NCBI RefSeq assembly: GCF_018729455.1
Contig: NZ_JAHHZF010000006.1
Span: 1-64,000, forward strand
Length of the DNA: 64,000 nt
Direction of reading: 5' to 3'
DNA from: Prosthecodimorpha staleyi
GTDB taxonomy: Bacteria; Pseudomonadota; Alphaproteobacteria; Rhizobiales; Ancalomicrobiaceae
Made by a program: the position numbers and the translations under genes. This document shows, one piece after another, positions 7,927-20,896 of the stretch (within the stretch, counting starts at the first letter, position 1; each line of letters opens with the position of its first letter). The notes beneath the pieces were generated by a model, which searched no databases, was not told the DNA's origin, and saw nothing but the letters and a program-made list of their open reading frames with translations.

Positions 7927-9606
7927 TCACCGGCTGGCCAGGGCCTTGGCGCGGATGGCGGTCAGCGTGGTGCCCGGCAGGATGGCGTCGGGCGAGATCT
8001 TCAGATGCACGATCGCCGGCAGGCCGGAGGCTTCCGCGGCCCGGAAGGCGGCCGGGAAATCCTCGGTCCGCTCGACCGTGGCGCCGAAGCCGCCGAAGGC
8101 GCGGGCATAGGCGGCGAAATCGGGGTTGACCAGCTCGGTCGCCGAGACGCGGCCGGGATAGTCGCGCTCCTGGTGCATGCGGATGGTGCCGTATTGGCCG
8201 TTGTCGGCGATCACCACCACGATCGGCAGCCGGTACTGCACCGCGGCGGCGAATTCCTGGCCGCTCATCAGGAAGTCGCCGTCGCCGTTGACCGAGATGA
8301 CCGGGCGGTCGGGATAGAGCCGCTTCATGGCGACCGCCGCCGGCATGCCGTAGCCCATCGAGGCCGAGGCCGGGGCGACATGGGTCATGTAGCGGCGGAA
8401 ACGGTAGAAGCGGTGGATCCAGGAGGCGTAGTTGCCGGCCCCGTTGCACAGGATGGTGTCGTCGGGGAGGTTCTCGCGCAGCCAGATCATCACGTCGCCG
8501 AGATTGACCGCACCGGGCTGCGGCGTCGCCGTGCCGCTCCAGGCCAGATAGTCGGCATGGGCGGCCTCGGCCTCCGCGCGCCAGGCTGGCTTCGGCGTCA
8601 CGGCGAGGCGCGCGAGCGCCGGCACGAAACGGGTCGGCGCGGCATGGATGGCGAGCGTCGGGCGATAGACCCGGCCGAGTTCTTCGGCACCCGGATGGAC
8701 GTGGACCAGCTTCGTCTGCGGCGACGGCAGATCGAGGAGCGTGTAGCCCTGCGACGGGATCTCGCCGAGCCGGCCGCCGACCAGCACGATCAGATCCGCC
8801 GCCTTGGCACGCGCGATCAGCTTCGGGTTGGGGCCAAGCCCGAGATCGCCGGCGAAGACCGGCGACAGCGGATCGAACAGGGTCGCGCGGCGGTAGGAAT
8901 TGGCGACCGGCAGCCCCCAGGCCTCGGCCAGTTCATGCATTTCCGCCCGCGTCGCCTCCGTCCAGCGGCTGCCGCCGACCACGAAGAGCGGCCGCTCGGC
9001 GCCGGCCAGCAGCCCGGCGAGTTCGGCCATTTCCTCAGCCCCCGGCGCGGTCTCGACCGGCGCGCAGGCGGGCACGTCGGGGGCGCTGCAGCGTTCCTTC
9101 AGCACGTCCTTGGGCAGCGCGATCACGACCGGGCCGGGCCGGCCGGCGGTGGCGGTGTAGAAGGCGCGGCTGACGATCTCCGGCGTCCGGTCGGGGTCGT
9201 CGAGCTCGGTCGTCCACTTGGTCATGCTGCCGAAGACGGCGCGATAGTCCATCTCCTGGAAGGCCTCGCGCTCGCGGAAGGCGCGCTCGATCTGGCCGAC
9301 GAACAGGATCATCGGCGTGGAATCCTGCTGGGCGACATGGACGCCGGCGGAGGCGTTGGTGGCGCCGGGGCCGCGCGTCACGAAGCAGATGCCGGGCCGC
9401 CCGGTCACCTTGCCGACCGCCTCGGCCATCATCGCCGCCCCGCCCTCGTGGCGGCAGACCGTGACCGTGATGCCGCTGTCGACCAGGGCATCGAGCACGG
9501 CCAGATAGCTCTCGCCCGGCACGCAGAAGACATGGCGGACGCCGTTGACGACCAGTTGCGCGACCAGGGCCTCGGCGGCGGTGCGGGTCTGAAGCGGGGC
9601 ATGCAT
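7927..9606 (-). CDS. Thiamine diphosphate-dependent enzyme (acetolactate synthase-like)
   Basis: A 559-residue ThDP enzyme with the three-domain acetohydroxyacid synthase/decarboxylase layout. An N-terminal PYR domain has the cofactor-activating Glu in RHEGGAAMMA (about Glu54) followed by TRGPGATN. A central domain follows, then a C-terminal PP domain with the NGDGDFLMSGQEF metal-ThDP motif ending in IADN (about 430-465). It could be a carboligase or decarboxylase; no regulatory subunit gene is nearby, so branched-chain amino acid synthesis is unlikely. I chose the ATG at 9606 with GGGAGA upstream. It lies 77 bases downstream of the acyltransferase gene on the same strand and is probably co-transcribed with it. 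Confidence 0.88.
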   Translation of the reverse strand: MHAPLQTRTAAEALVAQLVVNGVRHVFCVPGESYLAVLDALVDSGITVTVCRHEGGAAMMAEAVGKVTGRPGICFVTRGPGATNASAGVHVAQQDSTPMILFVGQIERAFREREAFQEMDYRAVFGSMTKWTTELDDPDRTPEIVSRAFYTATAGRPGPVVIALPKDVLKERCSAPDVPACAPVETAPGAEEMAELAGLLAGAERPLFVVGGSRWTEATRAEMHELAEAWGLPVANSYRRATLFDPLSPVFAGDLGLGPNPKLIARAKAADLIVLVGGRLGEIPSQGYTLLDLPSPQTKLVHVHPGAEELGRVYRPTLAIHAAPTRFVPALARLAVTPKPAWRAEAEAAHADYLAWSGTATPQPGAVNLGDVMIWLRENLPDDTILCNGAGNYASWIHRFYRFRRYMTHVAPASASMGYGMPAAVAMKRLYPDRPVISVNGDGDFLMSGQEFAAAVQYRLPIVVVIADNGQYGTIRMHQERDYPGRVSATELVNPDFAAYARAFGGFGATVERTEDFPAAFRAAEASGLPAIVHLKISPDAILPGTTLTAIRAKALASR

Positions 9607-9683: not shown

Positions 9684-10568
9684 TCACGGCCCGAAGAGCA
9701 CCAGTTCGGTATCGGTCAGGTCGGCGAGACGCGCCTCGCCCGGCCCCTTTACGTATTTGCGGCCGCGCCGCTCGGTGTAGAACCCGGCGAGCCCGGGCAC
9801 CGGGCCGAGCGCGTCGATCAGCACGGCGAACCGGCCACGCCGCGCCAGCGCCCGCCCAAGCGGGGCGGCGGCGGCGACGAAATCCTCGACGCTTCGGCAA
9901 TAGGCGAGCTGCATCACCGGCAGCGGAATGCGGCCGCTGCGCATGCGGAACGGCAGGAACACGAAGGGCGACGGTCCCGGCGCGCCGCGCACCACCAGGC
10001 TCAGGCAGCCATAGCCGGCGTGGTCGCCGAGGAGCCGCGCCTCGGCCTCGTCGAGCCCGTCGACCGCCGCCGCCCCCGGGGCGACCGTCTCGACGCGCCG
10101 GCCGGCCCCGTTCGTCGACAGCAACGGCACGGCCGCGAACAGCCCGCTGCAATAGCGCCGGTAGCCCTGCGCCTCCAGGATCGGCCAGGTGCTCGGCGCG
10201 GGCGTGACGTTCAGATAGGTCGCCTGCTTGTTGCGCAGCGCCATCGAGGACAGCATCGCCGCATGGCCGCGATAGGGCGGATCGACATACCAGCTGGCGA
10301 TGTTGCAGCGCGGACCGGCCTCGCCGGACCGCCCGGTGAAGATCAGCAGCACGGCGCCGACCGGAACCCCGCCGGTCTCCAGCAGGTAGCCGTAGCGCGG
10401 CAGGCCGTCCGGCACCGCCCGGCTGCCCTGTCGCCGGAGCCCATCGAGGAAATAGGCCCGCGGCCGGGGCGCAAAGCCGCGCGCGAGCAGATCGGCGACC
10501 GCCTCGATGTCGGCATCTCCGATCGGCCGGCAGCGGACCCGAGTATCCGTAGTGCTTTGCTTTTCCAT
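9684..10568 (-). CDS. GNAT-like acyltransferase
   Basis: A 294-residue protein whose first half looks like a GNAT acetyl/acyltransferase. It has an opening strand RCRPIGDADIEAVADLL, the acceptor strand, and VDPPYRGHAAML as the pyrophosphate-binding loop near residues 95-110. The second half (about 150-294) is a further alpha/beta domain with no motif I recognise. It is divergent from the carrier-protein operon across a 77-base AT-rich gap, so the two units probably share a regulatory region. Transfer of a carrier-bound acyl group to an acceptor is an attractive inference but unproven. Confidence 0.7.
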   Translation of the reverse strand: MEKQSTTDTRVRCRPIGDADIEAVADLLARGFAPRPRAYFLDGLRRQGSRAVPDGLPRYGYLLETGGVPVGAVLLIFTGRSGEAGPRCNIASWYVDPPYRGHAAMLSSMALRNKQATYLNVTPAPSTWPILEAQGYRRYCSGLFAAVPLLSTNGAGRRVETVAPGAAAVDGLDEAEARLLGDHAGYGCLSLVVRGAPGPSPFVFLPFRMRSGRIPLPVMQLAYCRSVEDFVAAAAPLGRALARRGRFAVLIDALGPVPGLAGFYTERRGRKYVKGPGEARLADLTDTELVLFGP

Positions 10569-10645
10569 CGGCCCAAAGTCACTTCAAATTTAGGATTTCA
10601 ACCTATCGTCCAGTCGTATTCGAACCGCCAACGGGGGTGCAGGAA

Positions 10646-10894
10646 ATGTCGTCACGGTTAACGATTACCAACCTGATCGAAGAGATCGCGGCGGACCACA
10701 AGAAGACTCTGAAGCCCTTGTCTGACGACTTGGTTCTCCTGGAATCCGGCCTGGATTCTCTGTGCTTTGCGATCCTGGTCGCGCGGCTGGAGGACAAGCT
10801 CGGCATCGATCCCTTCTCGGCATCCGAGGAGGCCTATTTCCCCGTCACCCTCGGCGACTTCATCCGGTCCTACGACCATGCCGTCGCAGCCTGA
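10646..10894 (+). CDS. Acyl carrier protein
   Basis: An 82-residue acidic four-helix carrier protein. The phosphopantetheine attachment motif ESGLDSLCF places the modified Ser at residue 38, followed by the typical recognition helix ARLEDKLGIDPF. I chose the ATG at 10646; a GTG at 10637 is in frame, but GGGG at 10633-10637 fits as the ribosome site for the ATG. The gene overlaps the acyl-AMP ligase by 17 bases, so ligase and carrier are made together and the ligase presumably loads this carrier. It is not the fatty-acid-synthesis AcpP by context: no fab genes are nearby. Confidence 0.92.
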   Translation: MSSRLTITNLIEEIAADHKKTLKPLSDDLVLLESGLDSLCFAILVARLEDKLGIDPFSASEEAYFPVTLGDFIRSYDHAVAA

Positions 10895-12266
10895 CCCGCG
10901 GCCGCTGGTCGCCCGCCTCGGCCAGCGGCTCGCCGAGCGCAGCCTGTCGGACGCGTCGCGGACGGTGACGCTCGCCGCCATGGCCGGCGGCACCGTCCTG
11001 GGCGGCCGGGCCGATGACCTCGCCGGCCGCGCGGTGCTGATCGCGACCGCGACGCAGCTCGGCGCCGCCATGGCGCTGGTCGAACTGGACGGGCTCGTCC
11101 GCCGCCTCCTGCTGGCGCCGCCCGATCTCGCCGTCGAGCACCGCGCCGCGGTGATCGAGGATGCCGGCATCGACGCCGTCGTCACCGACGATCCCGAAGC
11201 CTGGCAGGCGCTGGGCGTCGGCACGGTCATCGCCCCGGACATCTCGCCGGTTCCCGCGCCGCGGCCGGACCGCGCCTCGGTCGCCACCGAATGGCTGATG
11301 CTGACCTCCGGCACCACCGGCCGGCCGAAGATCGTCGCCCACACGCTCGACGCGCTGACCGGCGCCATCGGCGGCGACGCGCCCTCGGCCGCGGCCGCGC
11401 CTGTCTGGGCGACCTTCTACGACATCCGCCGCTATGGCGGCCTGCAGATCCTGCTGCGCGCGCTGATCGCCGGCGGTTCGCTGGTGCTGTCCGCGCCCGG
11501 CGAGGATCTTGCTGCGCATATCGCGCGGCTGGTCCGTTGCGGCGTCACCCACATCTCGGGCACGCCGTCGCACTGGCGCAAGGCGCTGATGAGCTCGGCG
11601 ATCGGGTCCTTCCGGCCCGGCTATGTCCGCCTCTCCGGCGAGATCGCCGACCAGGCGGTGCTCGACGGCCTGCGCCAGACCTTCCCCGAAGCCTCGATCG
11701 GCCACGCCTATGCGTCGACCGAGGCCGGCGTCGGCTTCGCGGTCGACGACGGGCTGGAGGGCTTTCCGGCCCACTATGTCGGCCGGCCCGGCCCGGTCGA
11801 GATGAAGGTGGTCTACGGCGTCCTGCATATCCGCTCCCGCCGGGCGGCGCTCGGCTATGTCGGCGACGGGGCGAGCGCCCTGATGGATGCGGACGGCTTC
11901 GTCGACACCGGCGACATGGTCGAGCGGCGCGGCGACCGGTACCACTTCGTCGGCCGGCGCGGCGGCATCATCAATGTCGGCGGCCTGAAGGTGCACCCGG
12001 AAGAGGTCGAGGCGGCGATCAACCGCCATCCGCTGGTGCGCATGTCGCGCGTCAAGGCGCGCAAGAGCCCGATCACCGGCTCGATCGTCGTGGCCGACGT
12101 GGTGCTGACCCGGCCGGCGGACCCGACTGAGACCGCCGCGATCAAGGCGGAGATCCTGGCCGGCTGTCGGGACACCCTCCCGGGCCACAAGATTCCGGCC
12201 ATGATCGCCATCGTTCCCGCGATCGAGGTCTCTCCCTCCGGCAAGCTGGTGCGCAACGTTGCGTAA
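10878..12266 (+). CDS. Acyl-AMP ligase that likely loads the adjacent ACP
   Basis: A 462-residue ANL-superfamily enzyme, compact compared with the 500-560 residues of CoA ligases. A3 is LTSGTTGRPK (about 140), A5 YASTEAG (about 277), A7 DTGDMV (about 342), and the C-terminal A10 PSGKLVRN keeps the catalytic Lys. The ATG at 10878 lies inside the end of the ACP gene (17-base overlap), and its own end overlaps the SDR by 8 bases. This tight ACP-ligase-reductase coupling suggests adenylation of an acid and transfer to the ACP, as in stand-alone adenylation domains, rather than CoA ester formation. Confidence 0.85.
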   Translation: MPSQPDPRPLVARLGQRLAERSLSDASRTVTLAAMAGGTVLGGRADDLAGRAVLIATATQLGAAMALVELDGLVRRLLLAPPDLAVEHRAAVIEDAGIDAVVTDDPEAWQALGVGTVIAPDISPVPAPRPDRASVATEWLMLTSGTTGRPKIVAHTLDALTGAIGGDAPSAAAAPVWATFYDIRRYGGLQILLRALIAGGSLVLSAPGEDLAAHIARLVRCGVTHISGTPSHWRKALMSSAIGSFRPGYVRLSGEIADQAVLDGLRQTFPEASIGHAYASTEAGVGFAVDDGLEGFPAHYVGRPGPVEMKVVYGVLHIRSRRAALGYVGDGASALMDADGFVDTGDMVERRGDRYHFVGRRGGIINVGGLKVHPEEVEAAINRHPLVRMSRVKARKSPITGSIVVADVVLTRPADPTETAAIKAEILAGCRDTLPGHKIPAMIAIVPAIEVSPSGKLVRNVA

Positions 12267-12993
12267 TGTCCTGGTCACCGGCGGCAGCCGCGGCATCGGC
12301 CTGGCGATCGTGCGCCGCCTCTCGGCGGCGGGCTACGGCGTCGTCGCCACGGCGCGGCGCGAGAGCGACGAGCTCGCCGCCGCGATTGCGGCCGCAGAGG
12401 TCGCCGGCGCGGGGCCGATCCGGTTCCGTGCCCTCGACATGAACGAGATCGCCGCCATCCCGGCCTTCGTGCGCGACCTGCGCAAAGAGGTCGGCGCGCT
12501 CTACGGCCTCGTCAACAATGCCGGCATCGGCACGGAGGGCGTGCTGGCGACCATGTATGAGAGCCAGATCGCCGAGCTCCTCAGGGTCAATGTCGAGGCG
12601 CCGATCGTGCTGACCAAATATGTCGTCCGCCACATGCTGGCGGCCGGCGAAGGCCGCATCGTCAATATGGGCTCGATCATCGGCTCGACCGGCTATCACG
12701 CCCTCTCGGTCTACGGTGCCACCAAGGCGGCGCTCGAAGGCTTCAGCCGCTCGCTGTCGCGCGAAGTCGGCCGGATGGGCATCACCGTCAACGTCGTCGC
12801 GCCCGGCTTCGTCGAGACCGAACTGACGCGCGGCCTGGGCGAGGACGGCCGCGCCAAGATCGCCGGCCGCAGCGCGCTGCGGCGCCTGCCGGAACCCGAC
12901 GACATCGCCCGCACCGTCGAATTCCTGCTCGGCGACGGCGGCCGCAACATCACCGGCACGGTGCTGACCGTGGATGCCGGCAACACCGCCTGA
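12259..12993 (+). CDS. FabG-like 3-oxoacyl reductase (SDR)
   Basis: A 244-residue classical SDR with TGGSRGIG for the cofactor, NNAG in the LVNNAGIG stretch, and the SVYGATKAAL active site with Tyr and Lys. The C-terminal GTVLTVDAGNTA is typical of FabG relatives. The start is a TTG at 12259 that overlaps the ligase stop by 8 bases. The nearby ATG at 12266 is out of frame and no other in-frame start lies close, so initiation by coupling is likely. In this operon it would reduce a keto group on an ACP-bound acyl chain. Confidence 0.88.
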   Translation: MRNVLVTGGSRGIGLAIVRRLSAAGYGVVATARRESDELAAAIAAAEVAGAGPIRFRALDMNEIAAIPAFVRDLRKEVGALYGLVNNAGIGTEGVLATMYESQIAELLRVNVEAPIVLTKYVVRHMLAAGEGRIVNMGSIIGSTGYHALSVYGATKAALEGFSRSLSREVGRMGITVNVVAPGFVETELTRGLGEDGRAKIAGRSALRRLPEPDDIARTVEFLLGDGGRNITGTVLTVDAGNTA

Positions 12994-13109: not shown

Positions 13110-14294
13110 TCACGACAGCGGCAGGCGGCGGAACCGGTCGGGGCGGTCGGGGTCGTGGAACTTGTTGAAGGGGCCGTTGTCGACGAAATGGCGGTGGCAG
13201 AAGGCCAGCCGATCCGGCGACAGCGTCACGCCGATGCCGGGGCCGGTCGGCACTGGGACCTGATTGTTGCGCGGGCGCAGCGGGCCCTCCTCGATCACGT
13301 CGAAGGGCTGCATGTGGAACAGCGACTGCGACGGCTCGCGGATATGCTCGAAGGCGGCGGCGAGATGCAGGTAGACGCTGCTGGCGATGCCGGAATCGCC
13401 CGAATAGCACCAGAAATCGAGGCCCATCTGCTCGCAGGCGGCGATGAATTTCAGCGTCCGGCCGATGCCGCCATGGACATTCACGTCGGTGCAGAAGGCG
13501 TCGGGCACGCCGAGCGCCACGGCGCGGCGCAGGTCCGGCGTGTGCACCGAGAAGGGGATCGCGGTGTGGCGGCGGAGTTTCGCCATGTCTTCGAAGGTGG
13601 CGACCGGATCCTCCCAGGAGCGGATGCCGAGCGGCTCGATCGCCTGCGCGATGCGCGTCGCGGTCGCCAATGAATAGGCCTTGTTGGAATCGACCCGCAA
13701 CACCGCCTCCGGGCCGAGGCCGTCGCGCAGCAGCGCCAGCGTCTCGATGGACGGCTTCGGGTCGGCGGTGGAGAGCTTGCCCTCGAACATCGTGGTGCCG
13801 AAGCGCTCCTTCTGGCCGAGGCAGTAGTCGAGCACCGCCTGCGGATCGCTCTCGCCGCCGACGCCGTCCTTGGCCTCGCGGAAGGCGAAATAGTCCGTGA
13901 ACGTGATGGCATCGCGCACGCGGCCGCCGAAAAGGTCCGAAAGCGGCCGGCCCCAGGCCTTGCCGCGCAGATCCCAGAGCGCCATCTCGATCGCCCCGAA
14001 GGCGCGGATGCCGGCGAAGTCGACATCCGTATAGACGCCGCGCCAGGACGGCAGGCACAGCGCCTCGCAGGCCTGGATGTCGATCGGATCGCGACCGATC
14101 AGGCGCGGCGCAAAGCTGTTGGCGATCAGCGCCGCATTGGCAGGCGACGGCCCCTCGCCGAGCCCGACCAGCCCATCGCTGGTCTCGACCTCGACGATGG
14201 TCTTCGAGAAGCCCGCCAGCGAGCCGTAGGACCAGAGATAGGGCGCCTCGAGCGGGATGTTGACCGGCGTGGCGCGGATGGCTGTGATCTTCAT
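13110..14294 (-). CDS. Enolase-superfamily protein (mandelate racemase / muconate lactonizing type)
   Basis: A 394-residue protein with the enolase N-terminal cap (MKITAIRATPVNIPL onward) and a barrel domain. Barrel residues visible are the base Lys in FEGKLST, the first metal Asp in RVDSNKAY and the second metal Glu in SWEDPV. The third-ligand region reads FSVHTPDLR, not the common DE pair, so the exact subclass is uncertain. Such enzymes dehydrate or epimerise sugar acids or racemise alpha-hydroxy acids. Its start overlaps the Ldh_2 gene by four bases (ATGA), so the two act in one pathway, probably on a hydroxy acid. Confidence 0.88.
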   Translation of the reverse strand: MKITAIRATPVNIPLEAPYLWSYGSLAGFSKTIVEVETSDGLVGLGEGPSPANAALIANSFAPRLIGRDPIDIQACEALCLPSWRGVYTDVDFAGIRAFGAIEMALWDLRGKAWGRPLSDLFGGRVRDAITFTDYFAFREAKDGVGGESDPQAVLDYCLGQKERFGTTMFEGKLSTADPKPSIETLALLRDGLGPEAVLRVDSNKAYSLATATRIAQAIEPLGIRSWEDPVATFEDMAKLRRHTAIPFSVHTPDLRRAVALGVPDAFCTDVNVHGGIGRTLKFIAACEQMGLDFWCYSGDSGIASSVYLHLAAAFEHIREPSQSLFHMQPFDVIEEGPLRPRNNQVPVPTGPGIGVTLSPDRLAFCHRHFVDNGPFNKFHDPDRPDRFRRLPLS

Positions 14295-15289
14295 GAGGCC
14301 TGGATCGTCCTGATCTGTGCGAGAAGCGCGTCGTCGACATCGACGCCGTCCGTCTCGGCCCGCTGGCGGGCCTCCAGGCGGCGGTCTCCGGGCAGGCGCG
14401 TGCCCGGCTGGGCGACGATGGACGCCACCAGGGCCTCCAGCCGCGCCTCGAATCCGGGCTCATAGGCGGCGGGATCGAAGGCGACGAAGCACTGCCCGAC
14501 ACCCGGCGGCGGCCCGTCGGATTTCGCGTAGGGCGAGGCATCCTGCGAGAAATTCGCGCCCGTCAGGCCCGCCGCCAGGATCTCGACGATCAGCGCCAGC
14601 GCCGCGCCCTTGGCGCCGCCCATCGGCGCCATCGACCCTCCAAGGCCGGCGACCGGATCCGTGGTCGGCTGCCCCTGCGCGTCGAAGGCCCAGTCCGGCG
14701 GGATGGTCCGGCCGGCCCGGGCGGCCGCGCTCAGCGTCACCTTGGTGACCTGGCTGGTCGCCATGTCGATCACCAGGGGCTCGCGGCCGGCCCTCGGGAC
14801 AGCGAAGGCCAGCGGATTGGTGCCGAAGAGCGGCTTGCGGCCGCCCCAGGGCGCGACATTGGGCGGCGAATTGCTGAAGGCCAGCGCGATCAGCCCGTTC
14901 TGCGCCAGGTCCTCGACCGGATGGCCGAGCACGCCGATCGAATAGGACCGCCGGATCGCCAGCGTGGCGCAGCCGTTGGCCCGCGCCGCCGCCGCCAGCA
15001 GCGGGCGCGCAAGGTCGAAGGCCGGATGGGCGAAGCCGTGACCGGCATCGGCGAGAACCGCCCCCGCCCGCGGCGTGGTCACCACCGGCACGGCGCGGCC
15101 GTCGACCTTGCCGGTCTTGAGATGGCCGAGATAGGTGCCGAGATAGCCGAGGCCGACGCTGCCGATGCCGTCCGCCTCAGCCCGGCGGATCGACCGCGCG
15201 ACGGCGGCGGCGGCGGTCCCGTCGGCCCCGCAGGCGACGAGCGCATCGAGCGCCAGGGTTTCGATGTGCTCAAGGCTGAGCCGGGCCAT
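14291..15289 (-). CDS. Malate/L-lactate dehydrogenase (Ldh_2) family oxidoreductase
   Basis: A 332-residue protein of the NAD(P)-dependent Ldh_2 family, structurally unrelated to classical lactate dehydrogenase. Members oxidise 2-hydroxy acids such as malate, sulfolactate or ureidoglycolate, or reduce cyclic imino acids. Diagnostic stretches are the N-terminal helix with ARSIRRAEADGIGSVG, NPLAFAVPR, and MGGAKGAALALIVEIL. It is the first gene of a two-gene unit with the enolase-superfamily enzyme (ATGA overlap). The upstream gap leads to the oppositely ending aminoacyl-carrier locus. The substrate is not determined. Confidence 0.9.
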   Translation of the reverse strand: MARLSLEHIETLALDALVACGADGTAAAAVARSIRRAEADGIGSVGLGYLGTYLGHLKTGKVDGRAVPVVTTPRAGAVLADAGHGFAHPAFDLARPLLAAAARANGCATLAIRRSYSIGVLGHPVEDLAQNGLIALAFSNSPPNVAPWGGRKPLFGTNPLAFAVPRAGREPLVIDMATSQVTKVTLSAAARAGRTIPPDWAFDAQGQPTTDPVAGLGGSMAPMGGAKGAALALIVEILAAGLTGANFSQDASPYAKSDGPPPGVGQCFVAFDPAAYEPGFEARLEALVASIVAQPGTRLPGDRRLEARQRAETDGVDVDDALLAQIRTIQAS

Positions 15290-15793: not shown

Positions 15794-15882
15794 CTGTCAT
15801 CCCCGGGCTTGTCCCGGGGATCCAGACTTTTCAAGGACTTGACCTTCACACTGGATCCCCGGGACAAGCCCGGGGATGACAG
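15794..15882. repeat. 32-bp perfect inverted repeat
   Basis: The arms 15794-15825 and 15851-15882 are exact reverse complements over all 32 bases, separated by 25 bases. Each arm holds the core CCCGGGCTTGTCCCGGGGAT. Cores of this kind are, from general knowledge, a frequent dispersed intergenic repeat in Hyphomicrobiales. It carries no open frame and would fold into a very stable cruciform or hairpin. It differs from the 3.9-4.3 kb repeat. Confidence 0.9.
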
Positions 15883-15915
15883 AATGGTGGGTTCGGCATG
15901 CTTCCCGGCAGCCTG

Positions 15916-16845
15916 TCAGAGGGCGAGCAGCGACCGCACGCTCGCCGGCCAGCGGGCGAGATCGGTGCCGTGGGTGTGGAACAGGGCGACCGCGAGGCGG
16001 TCCATGCCGAAGGCGACGCAGCCGGTATGGGCCGGCTCGCCATTGGCGTCCTTGATGTCCCAGGTCACGCCGAAATGCTCGCGATGATAGTTGAAGCTCA
16101 TGCAGGCGGTCGGGCTTTCCTCCGAGCGCAGCGGCACGAGCAGTTCGAATTTCAGCGCCTGCTGCACCTGGCTGACCGCCTTGATCTGGCCGACGCGGCC
16201 GAAGAAGGGGTCGGAGGCGGTGTCGACCCGGAAGGTCAGGCCGAGATCGCGGGCGATGCCCTGCGCCCGCTCCATCCAGCGCTCGCGGAAGGCGGCGACA
16301 TCGTCCGGGGCGCCGATCATGACATATTCGCGCATCCGGAAGGACTGCAGCCGGTCGAGATGCTTCGACGGCTCGTGGCGGAAGCAGTCGGCCGCCACGT
16401 CGAAGACCAGGCCGCCGGCCGGCAGCGGACCGCGCTCGGCGACGATCGGATAAACCGGGTAGCAGGCCGCCGGCGACAGGACGAGGTCGGCCGGCGAAAG
16501 CGCGTCGGTCCAGGTCCCGCCGCGGTCGAAGCGGGTGACCGCGTCGAGGATCTCGCGCTCGGTGCCATGCAGGGCGCAGACGCAGCCGAGCAGGTTCGGG
16601 AAGCTCTTCAGATAGCCGGACTTCTCCAGCTGGCTGCGGCTCATCACCGGCGGGAAGCGGAACACCTCGGTGCCCTCCTCCCGATGGCCGGAGATCAGCG
16701 CCGCCAGCTTGTCGACGATGCCCTCGTAGAGCGCGGTGCGGGCATAGACGCCCTCCGCGCCCATCTTGTGGAACAGCACCTCGGCGAGCGGATCGAGCGG
16801 ATCGGCGGGCGTGCAGGCGAACCCCTTGGGGGCGATCATGTTCAT
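15916..16845 (-). CDS. Amino acid:[carrier protein] ligase (seryl-tRNA-synthetase-like)
   Basis: A 309-residue class II aminoacyl-tRNA-synthetase catalytic core without any tRNA-binding arm. Motif 2 is CFRHEPSKHLDRLQSF (residues 154-169) and motif 3 is FGMDRLAVAL. Cys128, Glu173 and Cys276 match the Cys-Glu-Cys zinc triad of the Bradyrhizobium amino acid:[carrier protein] ligases, with the same spacing as I recall for that family. Those enzymes activate glycine or alanine and load it onto the phosphopantetheine of a small carrier, not tRNA. A suitable carrier gene lies at 18465. I chose the ATG at 16845. The upstream flavoprotein gene, 53 bases away, is probably in the same operon. Confidence 0.92.
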   Translation of the reverse strand: MNMIAPKGFACTPADPLDPLAEVLFHKMGAEGVYARTALYEGIVDKLAALISGHREEGTEVFRFPPVMSRSQLEKSGYLKSFPNLLGCVCALHGTEREILDAVTRFDRGGTWTDALSPADLVLSPAACYPVYPIVAERGPLPAGGLVFDVAADCFRHEPSKHLDRLQSFRMREYVMIGAPDDVAAFRERWMERAQGIARDLGLTFRVDTASDPFFGRVGQIKAVSQVQQALKFELLVPLRSEESPTACMSFNYHREHFGVTWDIKDANGEPAHTGCVAFGMDRLAVALFHTHGTDLARWPASVRSLLAL

Positions 16846-16898
16846 CGGACGGAACCCTCGGCGGTCGGGAGGCGGATCGGACGAGCGGGCATCCGGGG

Positions 16899-18137
16899 TC
16901 AGGCCCGGAGGCTCGGCGCGACTTCGGCCATCAGGTTGGCGGTGGCCATGTTGGCGGCGACGCGGTCGTTGTGGATCATGATCGGCGCGGAGAGCACGTC
17001 GCGCAGATGGCGCGAGACGCTGAACTCGCCGTCGTTGCGATAGCCCGACAGGCCGTTGGCCCGGAGCGAAGCCATCACGGTCTCGACAGCCAGATCCGAG
17101 ACATCGACCTTCAGGCCCGCGATGGCCGACTGGAACTCGAGCGAGCCGAGCGCGCGCTCGTCCTCGTAGATGCCGGCATAGCGATCGGCATTGGCGGCGA
17201 GCAGCGCCCGCGCCCGGGCGAGCGAGGCCCTGGCGAGGCCGAAATGGCGGGCGCCGGGCGGCATCTGCCCGCCATTGCTGCGCGCGACCTTGCGCAGGAA
17301 CTTCTGCGTCCGCTCCACCGCCGCGGCGGCGACGCCGGTCCAGGCGGAGCCCCAGGTCAGATGCGCGAAGGGCACCATGGTCTGGGTATGGACCCGGTCG
17401 TAGGGCTCGGCGACGATCTGCTCGGCGGAGCCGGATGCCTCCAGCTTGAAGCCGATGCTGCGCGTGCCGCGCATACCCATCACGTCCCAGCCCTGGGTCG
17501 GGGTGAGCGCATAGTCCTCCTTGGCGATCACGACCAGCACCTGGTCGGAGCCGGCCGCATCGGCCGCGCGGCGTGCGGTGGTGACGATACCGTCGCATTC
17601 CGCGCCGTAGGAGATGACCGAGGCGTCACGCACGAGGTGGAAGCGGCCGTCGGCAACCTCGGCCGGCGCGGCGCTGGAGCGGACATTGCCGCCATTGTTG
17701 CCCTCGGTGGTCGAGGAGCCCATCAGCATCTGGTCGCGGGCGATGCGACGCATCATGCCTTCCATCCAGGCATGGCCGCGGCCATGGCGCACGATGCAGG
17801 CGACCTTGACATGGTGCATGGCGACGATCATCGCCGTGGACGAACAGGCGCGGCCGAGCGTGTAGCACATCTCCATCACGTCATGGATGGACGCGCCCTC
17901 GCCGCCGAGTTCGCGCGGCACCAGGACGCCGAGCAGTCGCTGTTCGCGCGCGGCCGCCATGGCGGCCGCCGGATAGCTCGCCTCGCGATCCACCGCATCG
18001 GCATGCGCCGCGGCGATCGCCGCCACCTCGGCGGTCCGTCGCACCAGGTCAGCCTTCGCATCGGCGAAGCCGGCTGCGGCCGGGCCGACCGGCATGTGAC
18101 TGCGGGTTTCCGCCTCGCGGACATTGATGATCGTCAT
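16899..18137 (-). CDS. Acyl-CoA dehydrogenase-fold flavoprotein, probably acting on carrier-bound substrate
   Basis: A 412-residue acyl-CoA dehydrogenase-superfamily protein. It has an N-terminal helical domain with GVLVPRELGGEGASI, a middle beta domain with MGSSTTEGNNGGN in the flavin loop, and a C-terminal four-helix domain ending RDVLSAPIMIHNDR. Neither usual catalytic Glu position seems occupied: the late site reads APIMIHND and helix G lacks an ER pair. That suggests monooxygenase or other flavin chemistry. GGAGG about 10 bases before the ATG at 18137 sets the start. Its place between the aminoacyl-carrier ligase and the divergent carrier gene suggests that it oxidises the aminoacyl-S-carrier, as PltE-type enzymes do with prolyl-carrier; this is inference. 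Confidence 0.85.
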   Translation of the reverse strand: MTIINVREAETRSHMPVGPAAAGFADAKADLVRRTAEVAAIAAAHADAVDREASYPAAAMAAAREQRLLGVLVPRELGGEGASIHDVMEMCYTLGRACSSTAMIVAMHHVKVACIVRHGRGHAWMEGMMRRIARDQMLMGSSTTEGNNGGNVRSSAAPAEVADGRFHLVRDASVISYGAECDGIVTTARRAADAAGSDQVLVVIAKEDYALTPTQGWDVMGMRGTRSIGFKLEASGSAEQIVAEPYDRVHTQTMVPFAHLTWGSAWTGVAAAAVERTQKFLRKVARSNGGQMPPGARHFGLARASLARARALLAANADRYAGIYEDERALGSLEFQSAIAGLKVDVSDLAVETVMASLRANGLSGYRNDGEFSVSRHLRDVLSAPIMIHNDRVAANMATANLMAEVAPSLRA

Positions 18138-18464
18138 ATTCTCGCTCCTCCCGGTCGTTCGGAGGATCGACCGGTTCACGTTCCCACTTCGCTTTTGACG
18201 CGCAGGCACTGTCGACCAAAGGCATTTCCAAAATCTGATGAAATGCTCGAATGCCGATATCACGATTTGCCTTGGTTAACGGTCCTATTCTGTAAAAATC
18301 GTGAGGATTTGGTAAGTCGTTAAGATTAATTTCTAGAAACGTCCGGAATTTCCTGCGCAGGCAACAGCTTTGAAACCCGGGAGACGTCAACTGAGGCTAT
18401 CTTAAAGGCTCAGGATCAGTCCCGGCGCGCCGCGGCGGCCGGCCGGGCTGCGCAGGAGGCATGA
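18138..18464. promoter_or_regulatory. AT-rich divergent promoter region of the aminoacyl-carrier locus
   Basis: A 327-base gap between the flavoprotein (-) and the carrier protein (+), clearly richer in A and T than the flanking genes. It holds a 9-bp inverted repeat, TCACGATTT (18260-18268) with AAATCGTGA (18296-18304), and a direct AGGCT repeat near 18392-18410. The inverted repeat is a candidate operator. No open frame here looks real. Confidence 0.5.
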
Positions 18465-18752
18465 ATGCCGCAGTTTTCGAGAGAGCAGATCCGCGACGAG
18501 GTGACGGCGCTGGTCGGGTCCATCCTGACCGCCTCCGGCCGCAATCCGGCGATCGATCCGGATGTCGCGCTGGTCGATGCCGGCCTGGCATCGGTCGACA
18601 TGGTCAATCTGATGCTCGGCGTCGAGGCGAGCTTCGACCTGATGATCCCGCGCGAGGATCTGACGCCGGAGAATTTCCGCTCGGTCGCCAGCGTCGAGGC
18701 CATGGTGGCCCGCCTCATCGGCCTGGACCGGCCGCTGTCCAAGGTCGCCTGA
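18465..18752 (+). CDS. Stand-alone carrier protein, partner of the amino acid ligase
   Basis: A 95-residue acidic four-helix carrier. The motif DAGLASVDM puts the phosphopantetheinylated Ser at residue 43, followed by MLGVEASFDLMIPRED. CAGGAGG at 18453-18459 lies 5 bases before this ATG; an overlapping ATG at 18461 in another frame is too close to the ribosome site. Being divergent from the aminoacyl ligase and flavoprotein, it is the natural acceptor of the activated amino acid. It is a different protein from the ACP at 10646 and has its own terminator, so it is probably transcribed alone. Confidence 0.9.
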   Translation: MPQFSREQIRDEVTALVGSILTASGRNPAIDPDVALVDAGLASVDMVNLMLGVEASFDLMIPREDLTPENFRSVASVEAMVARLIGLDRPLSKVA

Positions 18753-18897: not shown

Positions 18898-20244
18898 TCA
18901 CTCCGCCGGCGCCTCGCGCACCGCCCCGCACACTGGGGCGACGGCTGCCCTCGGCCGGTTCAGGAACAGAGCGACCACGTCCGTGCGCATCTCGCCGAGG
19001 CGGCGGACCGCGACGGCGGTGGCGACGATCCAGCCGGTATAGCTGATCACCACCGCCCAGGCGGCGCCCGCCGGACCGAAGCGCGGCCCGAGCACCCAAT
19101 TGGCGGCGAAGAGCGCCACCAGGGCGCCGGTGCACAGCGCGGCGTTGAGGCGCTGGGCGCCGGTCAGGGTCAGGAGATGCGCGCTCGGTCCGGCCATGGC
19201 GCGGACGACCTGCGTCGCCACCATGATGACCAGCACGTCGCGCGCCGTACCGAACTCGGCCCCGAACAGACCGAGGACCTGCCGGCCCAACACGAAGCAG
19301 CCGAGCACCGCTGCACTGGTGAAGGCGAGCGGCAACAGGATGGAGCGTCGGGCGGCGCGGCGCATGCCGGCCTGATCGCCCTTGCCGCGCGCATCGGCCA
19401 GATCGGGAATCGCGATCTGCTGGGCGATCTGCACGAAATAGCCGACCAGCAGCGAGAGTTTGAGGCAGACGCCGAAGACGGCGATGTCGGATTGGCTGAG
19501 GAACGGCGTCGCGAACAGGATCGCCACATCCGCGAAGGTGTTGGTGTAGAGCGACAGCAGCACCAGCGGCAGCGCCTCGCGCCGCCAGCGCTGACCGAGC
19601 CGCCGTTCTTCCGGGCGCGGCATCTCGATGGCCGGCAGATGCGGCTGCAGCGCCCGGAAGACGACCAGGGCGGTAACCGTGACCAGCGTCGAGAAGAGGA
19701 TCATCACCTCGCCGCCGGTCGGCCGGCGCACGAACGCCTCCAGGGCGACGATCAGCCCCAGAAAGATGATCGGACGGACCAGGCCATCGGGGACGTAACA
19801 CCAGCCGAAGAAGCGCATCGCCCCGGCCAGGTTGGTGTTCAGCACCAGCGAGGCGGCCGGAACGATGGTCGCGCCGGCGACCGCATAGACGACGCGGGTG
19901 GTCGGGTCGAGATCGGGCACCAGCAGGCAGGCGAGCACGACCAGGAACGCGGCGGCGACCGAGCAGGCCAGCCCGTCGAACATGGCGCGCGACACGAAGG
20001 CCTTGAACAGTCGCGCCTTCGAGGCGTCGCGGTAGCGCGCGGAGAAGCGGTAGGCGATCTGCGAATAGCCGATCGACGTGACGAAACCGGCGACGGTCGC
20101 CAGCGAGGTCGCCGAATAGAAGATGCCCAGATCATGGCTGCCGAGGGTCTTCGCCAGCATGATCTGGGTGAGGAAACCCACGCCGGCGCCGGAAATGCGC
20201 ATGGCGAACAAGCCGGCCGAGCCCGTGAGGAGGGATTTGATCAA
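18898..20244 (-). CDS. Polysaccharide/lipid-linked flippase (MATE/Wzx-like)
   Basis: A 448-residue integral membrane protein with about 12 hydrophobic segments. It begins MIKSLLTGSAGLFAMRISGAG, the usual opening of Wzx/RfbX-type flippases, and continues through repeated Leu/Val/Ala-rich helices with short charged loops. The family moves lipid-linked glycans or peptidoglycan precursors across the inner membrane. No glycosyltransferase gene is in the window, which makes a classical polysaccharide operon unlikely. It converges on the carrier protein gene and is divergent from the cupin across an AT-rich 199-base gap. Confidence 0.85.
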   Translation of the reverse strand: MIKSLLTGSAGLFAMRISGAGVGFLTQIMLAKTLGSHDLGIFYSATSLATVAGFVTSIGYSQIAYRFSARYRDASKARLFKAFVSRAMFDGLACSVAAAFLVVLACLLVPDLDPTTRVVYAVAGATIVPAASLVLNTNLAGAMRFFGWCYVPDGLVRPIIFLGLIVALEAFVRRPTGGEVMILFSTLVTVTALVVFRALQPHLPAIEMPRPEERRLGQRWRREALPLVLLSLYTNTFADVAILFATPFLSQSDIAVFGVCLKLSLLVGYFVQIAQQIAIPDLADARGKGDQAGMRRAARRSILLPLAFTSAAVLGCFVLGRQVLGLFGAEFGTARDVLVIMVATQVVRAMAGPSAHLLTLTGAQRLNAALCTGALVALFAANWVLGPRFGPAGAAWAVVISYTGWIVATAVAVRRLGEMRTDVVALFLNRPRAAVAPVCGAVREAPAE

Positions 20245-20443
20245 GGAGGCACCCAGGGAGTAGACGTTCAGGCCAACTTAGCGGCCGCGCATTAAGATTT
20301 CAGCCCAGGCGGCGGGACCATTACACTTGGACAAGATACAGAACTAAGAATTAACCTTTACGCCACGATCAGCATTCCCGCTCATTCGGCCTTAAGGCGC
20401 AGGCGCGCAGACCTTGTCCGTTCAGCCTTCTGAGGACATCGCG

Positions 20444-20896
20444 ATGAGCAACCCGTTGATTGTCGTTTCCCGAACCGACGGACCGCTGCGGCCCTCTCCG
20501 ATCGAGCCGTCCTGGATCCATGAAGGCAATCCGGTCGCCTCGAACGCCATCCTGTCGACCAGTGCCGACGGCACCGCCTCGACGATCGTGTGGGAATGCA
20601 CCGAGGGCAAGTTCGAGTGGCACTACGATGTCGACGAGACCATCCATTTCCTGGAGGGCTCGGTGGTCATCGAGGCCGACGGCATGGCGCCGCAGCGGCT
20701 CGGCGCCGGCGACGTGATCTTCTTCAAGCGCGGCGCTGTCGCCCGCTGGCATGTCGAGAAGAAGGTGCGCAAGCTCGCCTTCTTCCGCCGGACCGTCCCG
20801 GGCTTCGTCGGCTTCGCGATCAAGGTGGCCGGCAAGCTGCGCCGCATGATCGGCGGCGCCGGGACCCCGAGCGGTTCCCTGCAGGAAGCCCGCTGA
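20444..20896 (+). CDS. Cupin-domain protein
   Basis: A 150-residue single-domain cupin of the DUF861-like kind. The metal-binding motif 1 region is EWHYDVDETIHFLEGSV and motif 2 is GAGDVIFFKRGAVARWHV. A basic C-terminal tail of about 30 residues follows (KVAGKLRRMIGG), longer than in minimal cupins. GAGGA at 20432-20436 lies 7 bases before the ATG at 20444. It has no signal peptide. It may be a small metalloenzyme or a sensor; the substrate is unknown. A strong terminator follows, so it is a single-gene transcript divergent from the flippase. Confidence 0.82.
   Translation: MSNPLIVVSRTDGPLRPSPIEPSWIHEGNPVASNAILSTSADGTASTIVWECTEGKFEWHYDVDETIHFLEGSVVIEADGMAPQRLGAGDVIFFKRGAVARWHVEKKVRKLAFFRRTVPGFVGFAIKVAGKLRRMIGGAGTPSGSLQEAR

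What the first reader, a model, noticed from the sequence alone, without database searches (positions are those of the whole stretch)
15916..18752. Amino acid:[carrier protein] ligase, flavoprotein and carrier protein in one divergent locus
Seen: a tRNA-synthetase-like enzyme with no tRNA-binding arm and a Cys128-Glu173-Cys276 zinc triad, an acyl-CoA-dehydrogenase-fold protein on the same transcript, and a stand-alone phosphopantetheine carrier (Ser43) divergent from them. Known: Bradyrhizobium homologues load glycine or alanine onto such carriers, but the pathway product is, to my knowledge, not settled. Inference: the flavoprotein oxidises the aminoacyl-S-carrier and the product is passed on, making a small amino-acid-derived metabolite or modification.
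Basis: partly seen in the sequence, partly recalled or inferred. Interest (0 to 1): 0.78.

Follow-up and report, generated by a model that had tools for sequence, protein, structure and literature searches.

The report
Carrier-bound amino acid oxidation gene cluster
A bacterium carries a conserved gene set that probably hooks a small amino acid onto a carrier protein, oxidises it there with a flavin enzyme, and hands it to an acyltransferase, most likely on the way to an unknown small molecule or a decoration of the cell surface.

Summary
The three genes are real and in place. The ligase is a clear member of the known amino acid:[carrier protein] ligases; its zinc triad is unchanged in 86 of 86 sequences aligned. 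In 249 genomes of the order, ligase and flavoprotein occur in exactly the same 48, always side by side. The flavoprotein lacks the catalytic glutamate of acyl-CoA dehydrogenases; its model matches flavin monooxygenases first, its sequence profile matches dehydrogenases first. On-carrier oxygenation, perhaps of nitrogen, is likelier than dehydrogenation, but unproven. In three remote loci an AurF-type N-oxygenase gene accompanies the ligase instead. GNAT and adenylating ligase mark the same 13 genomes: all 12 with this ligase branch plus one without a ligase. Whether the GNAT's acceptor is the second carrier's product or a surface sugar is open; in one genome it lies among polysaccharide genes. 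A 2010 note (PMC2922099) already linked Agrobacterium-type relatives to monooxygenation and surface sugars. The two-carrier, GNAT-containing version was not met in my ten paper searches. Substrate, chemistry and product are untested.

The parts
15916..16845 (-). amino acid:[carrier protein] ligase (class II aaRS homologue, 309 aa; Cys128, Glu173, Cys276)
   Evidence: NF005479 470 bits over cut-off 357; 3mey Bll0957 E 3.9e-171; triad unchanged in 86 of 86
16899..18137 (-). acyl-CoA-dehydrogenase-fold flavoprotein without the dehydrogenase catalytic Glu; proposed oxygenase of the carrier-bound aminoacyl group
   Evidence: model pLDDT 89.4; Foldseek first hits TdsC/DszC monooxygenases, also ACADs, KijD3, DnmZ; profile first hits ACADs; Ile388 at the Glu position
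18465..18752 (+). aminoacyl carrier protein, Ser43
   Evidence: PP-binding 21.1 bits over cut-off 20.8; 4h2s_C E 4e-18
9684..10568 (-).
   Evidence: within 8 kb of the trio in 79 of 80 named loci; Foldseek best hit a GNAT, 2ozg, E 8.7e-9; Pfam Acetyltransf_1 19.0 bits, below cut-off 20.7; no PDB sequence hit at E<=1 with its profile
10637..10894 (+). second carrier protein (ACP2, motif GLDSL; start uncertain, 10637 or 10649)
   Evidence: PP-binding 22.2 bits over cut-off 20.8; conserved beside the adenylating ligase
10878..12266 (+). AMP-forming adenylating ligase, proposed loader of ACP2
   Evidence: AMP-binding 71.7 bits; only solved relative at E<=1e-15 is the NRPS protein 4gr5; in 15 of 15 clade A genomes searched
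12259..12993 (+). FabG-like short-chain reductase of the second module
   Evidence: adh_short 172.5 bits; beside the adenylating ligase in the loci read
7930..9606 (-). thiamine diphosphate enzyme, acetolactate-synthase-like; frequent neighbour, less specific
   Evidence: NF006052 872 bits; near the GNAT in several clade A loci; homologues in 16 of 16 genomes at various places
20414..20896 (+). cupin (EutQ-like), frequent neighbour of the carrier gene
   Evidence: Cupin_3 74.3 bits; in 8 of 80 named loci and 4 of 14 distant clade A loci
18898..20244 (-). Wzx/MATE-like flippase, possible accessory
   Evidence: Polysacc_synt 31.8 bits; a gene of the same family at the same place in L127; otherwise only in the close relative L005 of 80 named loci

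Best explanation
The ligase activates a small amino acid (glycine, by analogy with the Bradyrhizobium enzymes; inferred) and loads it on carrier Ser43. The flavoprotein then oxygenates the carrier-bound aminoacyl group, most likely at the amino nitrogen. An acyltransferase takes the group onward: in this lineage (clade A) the GNAT enzyme, in the Agrobacterium-type lineage (clade B) the papain-fold DUF1839 protein. In clade A a second carrier, loaded by the adenylating ligase and modified by the short-chain reductase, supplies another building block of the same pathway. Shown: gene content, conservation, co-occurrence, missing dehydrogenase Glu, folds. Inferred: amino acid, oxygenation, its site, role and acceptor of the GNAT, product.
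For: Ligase and flavoprotein share exactly the same 48 of 249 genomes, on the same contig and within 1.3 kb in 48 of 48. GNAT (168 bits or more) and adenylating ligase (E<=1e-90) mark the same 13 of 249: the 12 clade A ligase genomes plus G165 (Fisher p 1.4e-19, not corrected for kinship). The GNAT sits with the trio in Bradyrhizobium, with the second module in G147, G042 and G218, and with both in the window. The catalytic Glu is replaced by Ile or Val in 43 of 43; Foldseek's first hits are FMN monooxygenases, with the sugar N-oxygenase KijD3 and nitrososynthase DnmZ further down. In L151, L152 and L164 an AurF N-oxygenase gene lies directly before a small carrier-like gene and the ligase; in L164 a thioester-reductase-like protein and a phosphopantetheinyl transferase follow. 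The fragin pathway oxidises carrier-bound valine with the AurF homologue HamC and has a reductase domain (passages of PMC5878181 and PMC11659414).
Against: By sequence profile the flavoprotein is nearer to acyl-CoA dehydrogenases (7p98 E 6.7e-27) than to DnmZ (8.4e-19) or DszC (about 4e-16). No flavin reductase was among the genes annotated round the trio. The carriers of the three AurF loci are recognised only by eye: none reached PP-binding (L151 and L164) and the best family hit is 14.9 bits; the tree join of these three ligases is flagged as a possible long-branch artefact. G165 has GNAT, second carrier and adenylating ligase but no ligase trio, so the GNAT may act without it. In G196 the GNAT lies on another contig than trio and module, among polysaccharide genes (L171), and G238 has a second GNAT apart from both (L172). 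Clade A loci L129 and L130 show no carrier match. Two clade B ligases (L132, L135) have no flavoprotein near.
Confidence: 0.42

Rival explanations
1. One reading: the flavoprotein is a dehydrogenase that makes an imino- or dehydroaminoacyl thioester (as prolyl-carrier dehydrogenases do), which is passed on.
For: Acyl-CoA_dh_N over cut-off; profile closest to acyl-CoA dehydrogenases among solved structures, and prolyl-ACP dehydrogenase 4irn is among the hits (E 1.1e-13).
Against: No Glu at the usual position (Ile 42, Val 1 of 43) and no column from 249 to 271 acidic in more than 20%; column 248 is acidic in 67% but Arg in the window protein. RedW model only 16 bits against 650.
Confidence: 0.2
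2. Surface-sugar aminoacylation, as proposed in 2010 for the Agrobacterium-type loci: the (modified) aminoacyl group is moved from the carrier to an amino sugar of a cell-surface polysaccharide. Compatible with an oxygenation step; it differs from a small-molecule pathway in the acceptor.
For: PMC2922099 note added in proof (passage). Clade B loci hold DUF1839 in 46 of 48, a GH2-like protein in 45 of 48 and a WcaJ-type sugar transferase in 11 of 48, and L096 an O-antigen-ligase-like gene. PMC9790009 describes a glycan cluster with Atu2577-2592 (passage); PMC10318531 suggests DUF1839 acts on cell-wall glycans (passage). In clade A: Wzx-like flippases beside the carrier in the window and L127, and in G196 the GNAT lies beside a flippase-like, a GT2, a GH10 and an O-antigen-ligase-like gene (L171). 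The GNAT model also resembles a glucosamine N-acetyltransferase (5kf1).
Against: No DUF1839, GH2-like or WcaJ match in 14 of 14 distant clade A loci; the second carrier module has no obvious place in this scheme; the flippase is not general in clade A.
Confidence: 0.32
3. The flavoprotein oxidises the alpha carbon, giving a hydroxyglycyl or glyoxylyl thioester that the thiamine diphosphate enzyme uses as acceptor in a carbon-carbon bond formation.
For: An acetolactate-synthase-like enzyme is a repeated neighbour (window, L014, L018, L035, L052, L125, L128, L134).
Against: Homologues of that enzyme occur at unlinked places and in two copies in several genomes, so the link is weaker; purely chemical reasoning.
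Confidence: 0.06

Closest known systems
Amino acid:[carrier protein] ligases of Bradyrhizobium (Bll0957 with its carrier, PDB 3mey and 4h2s)
   Same: Ligase and carrier are homologues of these structures; bll0957 and the acyl-CoA dehydrogenase gene bll0958 are both listed as raised in a phaR mutant (one table passage of PMC10888616).
   Different: The window organism keeps GNAT, second carrier, adenylating ligase and reductase together with the trio; in the four genomes of the Bradyrhizobium-like genus searched the adenylating ligase lies elsewhere.
Agrobacterium-type loci (carrier, flavoprotein, ligase, DUF1839, GH2-like; clade B here)
   Same: Homologous trio; flavoprotein 38-46% identical.
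   Different: Carrier co-directional, DUF1839 instead of GNAT at the locus, polysaccharide genes near in some; no match to GNAT, second carrier or adenylating ligase within the stretch in 48 of 48. Weak GNAT relatives lie elsewhere in nine such genomes.
Fragin/valdiazen (ham) pathway
   Same: Amino acid loaded on a carrier and N-oxygenated there, acyl group added later; the cluster includes a cupin and an aminotransferase (passages of PMC5878181 and PMC11659414).
   Different: NRPS adenylation domain instead of an aaRS-like ligase; AurF-type enzyme instead of an ACAD-fold flavoprotein.
Group D flavin monooxygenases and nitrososynthases (DszC/TdsC, KijD3, DnmZ)
   Same: Fold; group D includes N-hydroxylases, and some members act on carrier-bound substrates (passages of PMC6165268).
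   Different: 18-20% identity in the structural alignments; active-site residues not matched one by one; no reductase partner seen among the genes annotated.

Membership tests
Amino acid:[carrier protein] ligase (NF005479) | Profile score above the curated cut-off | tested here: met
   470.4 bits against 357
Amino acid:[carrier protein] ligase (NF005479) | Zinc ligands Cys, Glu, Cys | tested here: met
   Cys128, Glu173, Cys276 unchanged in 86 of 86 sequences; the metal itself is not shown
Amino acid:[carrier protein] ligase (NF005479) | No N-terminal tRNA-binding domain | tested here: met
   309 aa; match to serine--tRNA ligase only at profile positions 304-503 of 518
Amino acid:[carrier protein] ligase (NF005479) | Loads Gly/Ala on a carrier, not on tRNA | not testable with these tools
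   Described for relatives in PMC9437257 and PMC2922099 (passages)
Acyl-CoA dehydrogenase | Catalytic glutamate | tested here: not met
   Ile388 aligned with the Glu of IYEGT in 8i4p; Ile 42, Val 1 of 43; no column 249-271 acidic in more than 20%. The place of the alternative Glu in this helix is recalled, not taken from a call
Acyl-CoA dehydrogenase | Three-domain flavin-binding fold | tested here: met
   Foldseek hits to ACADs with TM up to 0.83 by target length
Group D flavin monooxygenase | ACAD-like fold with closest match to members | tested here: inconclusive
   TdsC/DszC rank 1-3 by Foldseek, but ACADs rank first by profile
Group D flavin monooxygenase | Oxygen and reduced flavin dependent activity | not testable with these tools
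   none
GNAT acyltransferase | GNAT fold | tested here: met
   Foldseek best hit 2ozg E 8.7e-9, TM 0.56 by query length; Pfam 19.0 bits, under the cut-off of 20.7; no PDB sequence hit
ham-type (fragin) pathway | AurF N-oxygenase in the locus | tested here: not met
   No AurF among the window genes put to Pfam; present only in the remote L151, L152, L164

The most novel reading that the evidence does not exclude
A hydroxamate-type assembly line without NRPS: the flavoprotein N-hydroxylates glycyl-S-carrier, and the GNAT transfers an acyl group from the second carrier onto that hydroxylamine, giving a carrier-bound N-acyl-N-hydroxyglycine that is released as a new metal-binding or signalling metabolite. 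An aaRS-derived ligase and a single GNAT would thus replace adenylation and condensation domains.
Probability: 0.14. Interest if true: 0.82.

Novelty: new variant of a known kind. Interest (0 to 1): 0.6.

Why it matters
What the aaRS-like ligases do in the cell has, to my knowledge, not been shown since the 2010 biochemistry. The work here gives a concrete, testable partner list (GNAT, second carrier, adenylating ligase, reductase) for the Bradyrhizobium-type branch, a reason to expect oxygenation rather than dehydrogenation, and a remote branch in which a recognised type of N-oxygenase accompanies the ligase in place of the flavoprotein. If right, it would define a compact route to N-oxygenated amino acid products that genome-mining rules based on NRPS domains would be expected to miss.

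Tried and rejected
Considered and set aside: (a) plain NRPS or peptide formation: no condensation domain was seen among the families checked. (b) Lactate-dehydrogenase-like and enolase-like genes (13110-15289) as members: matched in 1 of 80 named loci, L005, a close relative of the window, so left out. (c) MetA/MetY-type genes beside several clade A trios: suggestive of homoserine chemistry, but they may be ordinary methionine genes. (d) Thiamine diphosphate enzyme as a core member: too widespread. (e) Position-by-position comparison of the active site with DszC and nitrososynthases: not done; residues recalled from memory were not used as evidence. (f) The second-look structural aligner was not available.

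G173 has a ligase over the cut-off but its region was not fetched; its genus-mates G146 and G195 are clade B. Neighbourhood order uses my own simple gene caller, which picked no ligase in 14 of 90 loci; tblastn counts were used for totals. In one search the L124 'AMPlig' hit (34% over 126 aa) is a different enzyme and I count 7 of 14, not 8. Of the 18 clade C loci, neighbours of 11 were put to Pfam in part (L147, L148, L150-L153, L155, L159, L161, L162, L164). The GNAT of G803 outside its stretch was not searched.
Full report
What is there. The window's nearest named relative in the scan is Prosthecomicrobium hirschii strain 16 (ligase 98% identical, L005); its assembly has 6.19 Mb in 47 contigs. 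The three genes of the finding are present at the stated coordinates: ligase 15916-16845 minus, flavoprotein 16899-18137 minus, carrier 18465-18752 plus. The ligase is a clear member of NF005479 (470 bits, cut-off 357) and matches Bll0957 of Bradyrhizobium (3mey) with E 3.9e-171. Cys128, Glu173 and Cys276 are unchanged in 86 of 86 ligases aligned (window, the 80 distant loci L085-L164, and 5 of the 80 named loci). The carrier's nearest solved relative is 'Aminoacyl carrier protein 1', 4h2s_C (E 4e-18). The genome has one such ligase.

The unit is real. In the 80 named loci returned by one scan (the best 80 of 548, mostly Bradyrhizobium) the flavoprotein and a divergent carrier are present in 80 of 80. 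In 249 genomes of the order, 48 have a ligase over the cut-off and 48 have the flavoprotein at E 1e-80 or better; the two sets are identical, and in 48 of 48 the genes lie on one contig with starts of the matches at most 1,258 bases apart (Fisher p 1.5e-52; kinship makes this figure too small). One genome of the same genus, G210, has neither.

Three branches. From three searches I took 80 stretches round ligases. A tree of 86 ligases gives supported groups: A, 20 rows, 96/85, with the window and Bradyrhizobium; B, 48 rows, 99/97; C, 18 rows, all below the family cut-off, 100/100, with long branches that the tool warns about. Of the distant loci, 14 are A, 48 B, 18 C. In clade B the usual order is carrier, flavoprotein, ligase, DUF1839, GH2-like protein on one strand; flavoprotein matches in 46 of 48, DUF1839 in 46 of 48, GH2-like in 45 of 48, and a WcaJ-type sugar transferase within the stretch in 11 of 48. 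L132 and L135 lack flavoprotein, DUF1839 and GH2-like protein.

The missed partners. Window 9684-12993 holds a GNAT (294 aa, minus), a small second carrier (ACP2, plus), an adenylating ligase and a FabG-like reductase. The GNAT lies within 8 kb of the trio in 79 of 80 named loci; the exception, L006, is a 4.1-kb contig that ends 140 bases after the ligase. Second carrier, adenylating ligase and reductase lie by the trio in 7 of 80 named loci (L005 and six Rhodopseudomonas) and in 7 of 14 distant clade A loci (L123, L125, L126, L127, L128, L134, L146), in several different orders. The adenylating ligase is in 15 of 15 clade A genomes searched, so where it is not by the trio it is elsewhere. In the order sample, 13 of 249 genomes have the GNAT at 168 bits or more and 13 of 249 the adenylating ligase at E 1e-90 or better: the same 13, namely the 12 clade A ligase genomes plus G165 (Fisher p 1.4e-19). 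Weaker GNAT relatives occur in nine genomes of one genus, all with a ligase over the cut-off (109-136 bits), and in six more at 27-48 bits. In G147, G042 and G218 the GNAT sits with the second-carrier module away from the trio. In four genomes of the Bradyrhizobium-like genus it sits with the trio and the adenylating ligase is elsewhere, in the three read beside a long-chain acyl-CoA synthetase-like gene that has good matches in 16 of 16 genomes searched. The GNAT thus often sits at the seam of two modules.

Against a simple bridge: G165 has module and GNAT without the trio; in G196 trio and adenylating ligase are together but the GNAT is on another contig, beside a flippase-like, a GH10, a GT2 and an O-antigen-ligase-like gene (L171); G238 has a second GNAT away from the locus (L172). 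The G196 case, and the Wzx-like flippases next to the carrier in the window and in L127, speak for a surface-sugar acceptor.

The flavoprotein. Acyl-CoA_dh_N passes its cut-off, the middle domain does not. A model from 43 sequences has pLDDT 89.4. Foldseek's first three hits are the FMN monooxygenases TdsC and DszC (E 4e-18 to 1e-17, TM 0.76-0.77 by query length); acyl-CoA dehydrogenases start at rank 4, and KijD3 and DnmZ are within the first 50. By sequence profile the order is reversed: 7p98, an acyl-CoA dehydrogenase, leads (E 6.7e-27), DnmZ follows at 8.4e-19, DszC at about 4e-16. In the alignment with 8i4p the Glu of IYEGT (the catalytic residue, recalled) faces Ile388; that column is Ile in 42 and Val in 1 of 43. 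No column from 249 to 271 is acidic in more than 20%; column 248 is acidic in 67% but Arg in the window protein. A canonical dehydrogenase is therefore unlikely; oxygenation is favoured, not proven.

An independent hint. In clade C, L151 and L152 (one genus, two genomes) and L164 (another family) join with support 99/94, but the tool lists them among long branches whose join may be false. In each an AurF-type gene (PF11583, 102, 104 and 136 bits) precedes a small gene of 84-87 codons and the ligase. The small protein looks like a carrier by eye (DSL in L151 and L152), but no family model supports it beyond 14.9 bits. In L164 a thioester-reductase-like protein (NAD_binding_4 115 bits; TIGR01746 86 bits, below its cut-off) and a phosphopantetheinyl transferase follow; in L151 a protein of the NMO/FabK kind follows. 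That is 3 of 18 clade C loci, of which 11 had neighbours annotated in part. Passages of PMC11659414 and PMC5878181 say that valine loaded on HamD is oxidised by the AurF homologue HamC and that HamD contains a reductase domain. Loading followed by N-oxygenation on the carrier is thus a known logic. Five other clade C loci hold an MBOAT gene (clusters; Pfam for L147 and L150), which recalls D-alanylation systems (recalled, not tested).

What was already in print. PMC2922099 (passages only) predicts, in a note added in proof, that the paralogous SerRS with its carrier ligates an amino acid to an amino group of a cell-surface sugar derivative, that Atu2574 is the amide-forming enzyme, and that the redox enzyme modifies the aminoacyl group probably by monooxygenation. 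That Atu2574 is a DUF1839 protein is my inference. PMC10318531 (passages) puts DUF1839 in the papain-like fold and suggests glycan processing at the cell wall. PMC9790009 (passage) describes genes between Atu2577 and Atu2592 as part of a cluster for an uncharacterised glycan. PMC10888616 (one table passage) lists bll0957 and bll0958 among genes raised in a phaR mutant. PMC9437257 (passages) reviews the ligases. The original PNAS paper was not held, the Structure paper was not looked up; both are cited from these. Ten paper searches were answered; in their listings and the passages read I saw neither the GNAT and second-carrier partnership nor the AurF association. The library lacks most subscription journals, so this is a weak negative.

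Verdict. I file the ligase as a member of a known family, the flavoprotein as ACAD-fold but failing the dehydrogenase test, and the whole as a new variant: a two-carrier, GNAT-containing set in which a carrier-bound amino acid is probably oxygenated.

Noticed in passing
L151:8172-11583, L152:8371-11671, L164:8213-12008: Remote aaRS-like ligases in apparent operons with an AurF-type N-oxygenase; L164 adds a thioester-reductase-like protein and a phosphopantetheinyl transferase, L152 an O-methyltransferase.
   Followed up: partly
L147:7714-10799, L148:5692-8728, L149:7664-10717, L150, L155: Remote ligases beside an MBOAT acyltransferase gene; in L147-L149 MBOAT, ligase and a small carrier-like gene are consecutive. 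It looks like an alanylation-type system with an aaRS-derived loader.
   Followed up: partly
L127:2751-5090, L130:7196-9509, also L020, L061, L079, L128, L134: O-acetylhomoserine sulfhydrylase-like genes, some beside a MetA-like homoserine acyltransferase gene, close to clade A trios; Bradyrhizobium loci such as L008 have PNP_UDP_1 and IF-2B genes (methionine-salvage-like) on the other side. Meaning unknown.
   Followed up: partly
L171:4093-11361 (G196): GNAT homologue beside flippase-like, GH10, GT2 and O-antigen-ligase-like genes, apart from the trio of that genome.
   Followed up: partly
window 15798-15885: Inverted repeat (about tccccgggcttgtcccgggga and its complement) just downstream of the ligase, like an intergenic palindromic element; seen by eye.
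   Followed up: no
window 13110-15289: Enolase-superfamily and LDH2-type dehydrogenase genes between the two modules, matched in 1 of 80 named loci (the close relative L005).
   Followed up: partly
L060: A record titled Frankia sp. RB7 carries a locus with a ligase 83% identical to the window's and the arrangement of the Bradyrhizobium loci; the record may be mislabelled or contaminated.
   Followed up: no
L165:8796-13808 (G165): Second carrier, adenylating ligase, reductase, GNAT and acyl-CoA synthetase-like gene in a row in a genome of the same family that lacks the ligase trio.
   Followed up: partly
L073 and L076: Two copies of the trio region in one Bradyrhizobium japonicum record (NZ_JAFCKS010000003.1).
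   Followed up: no
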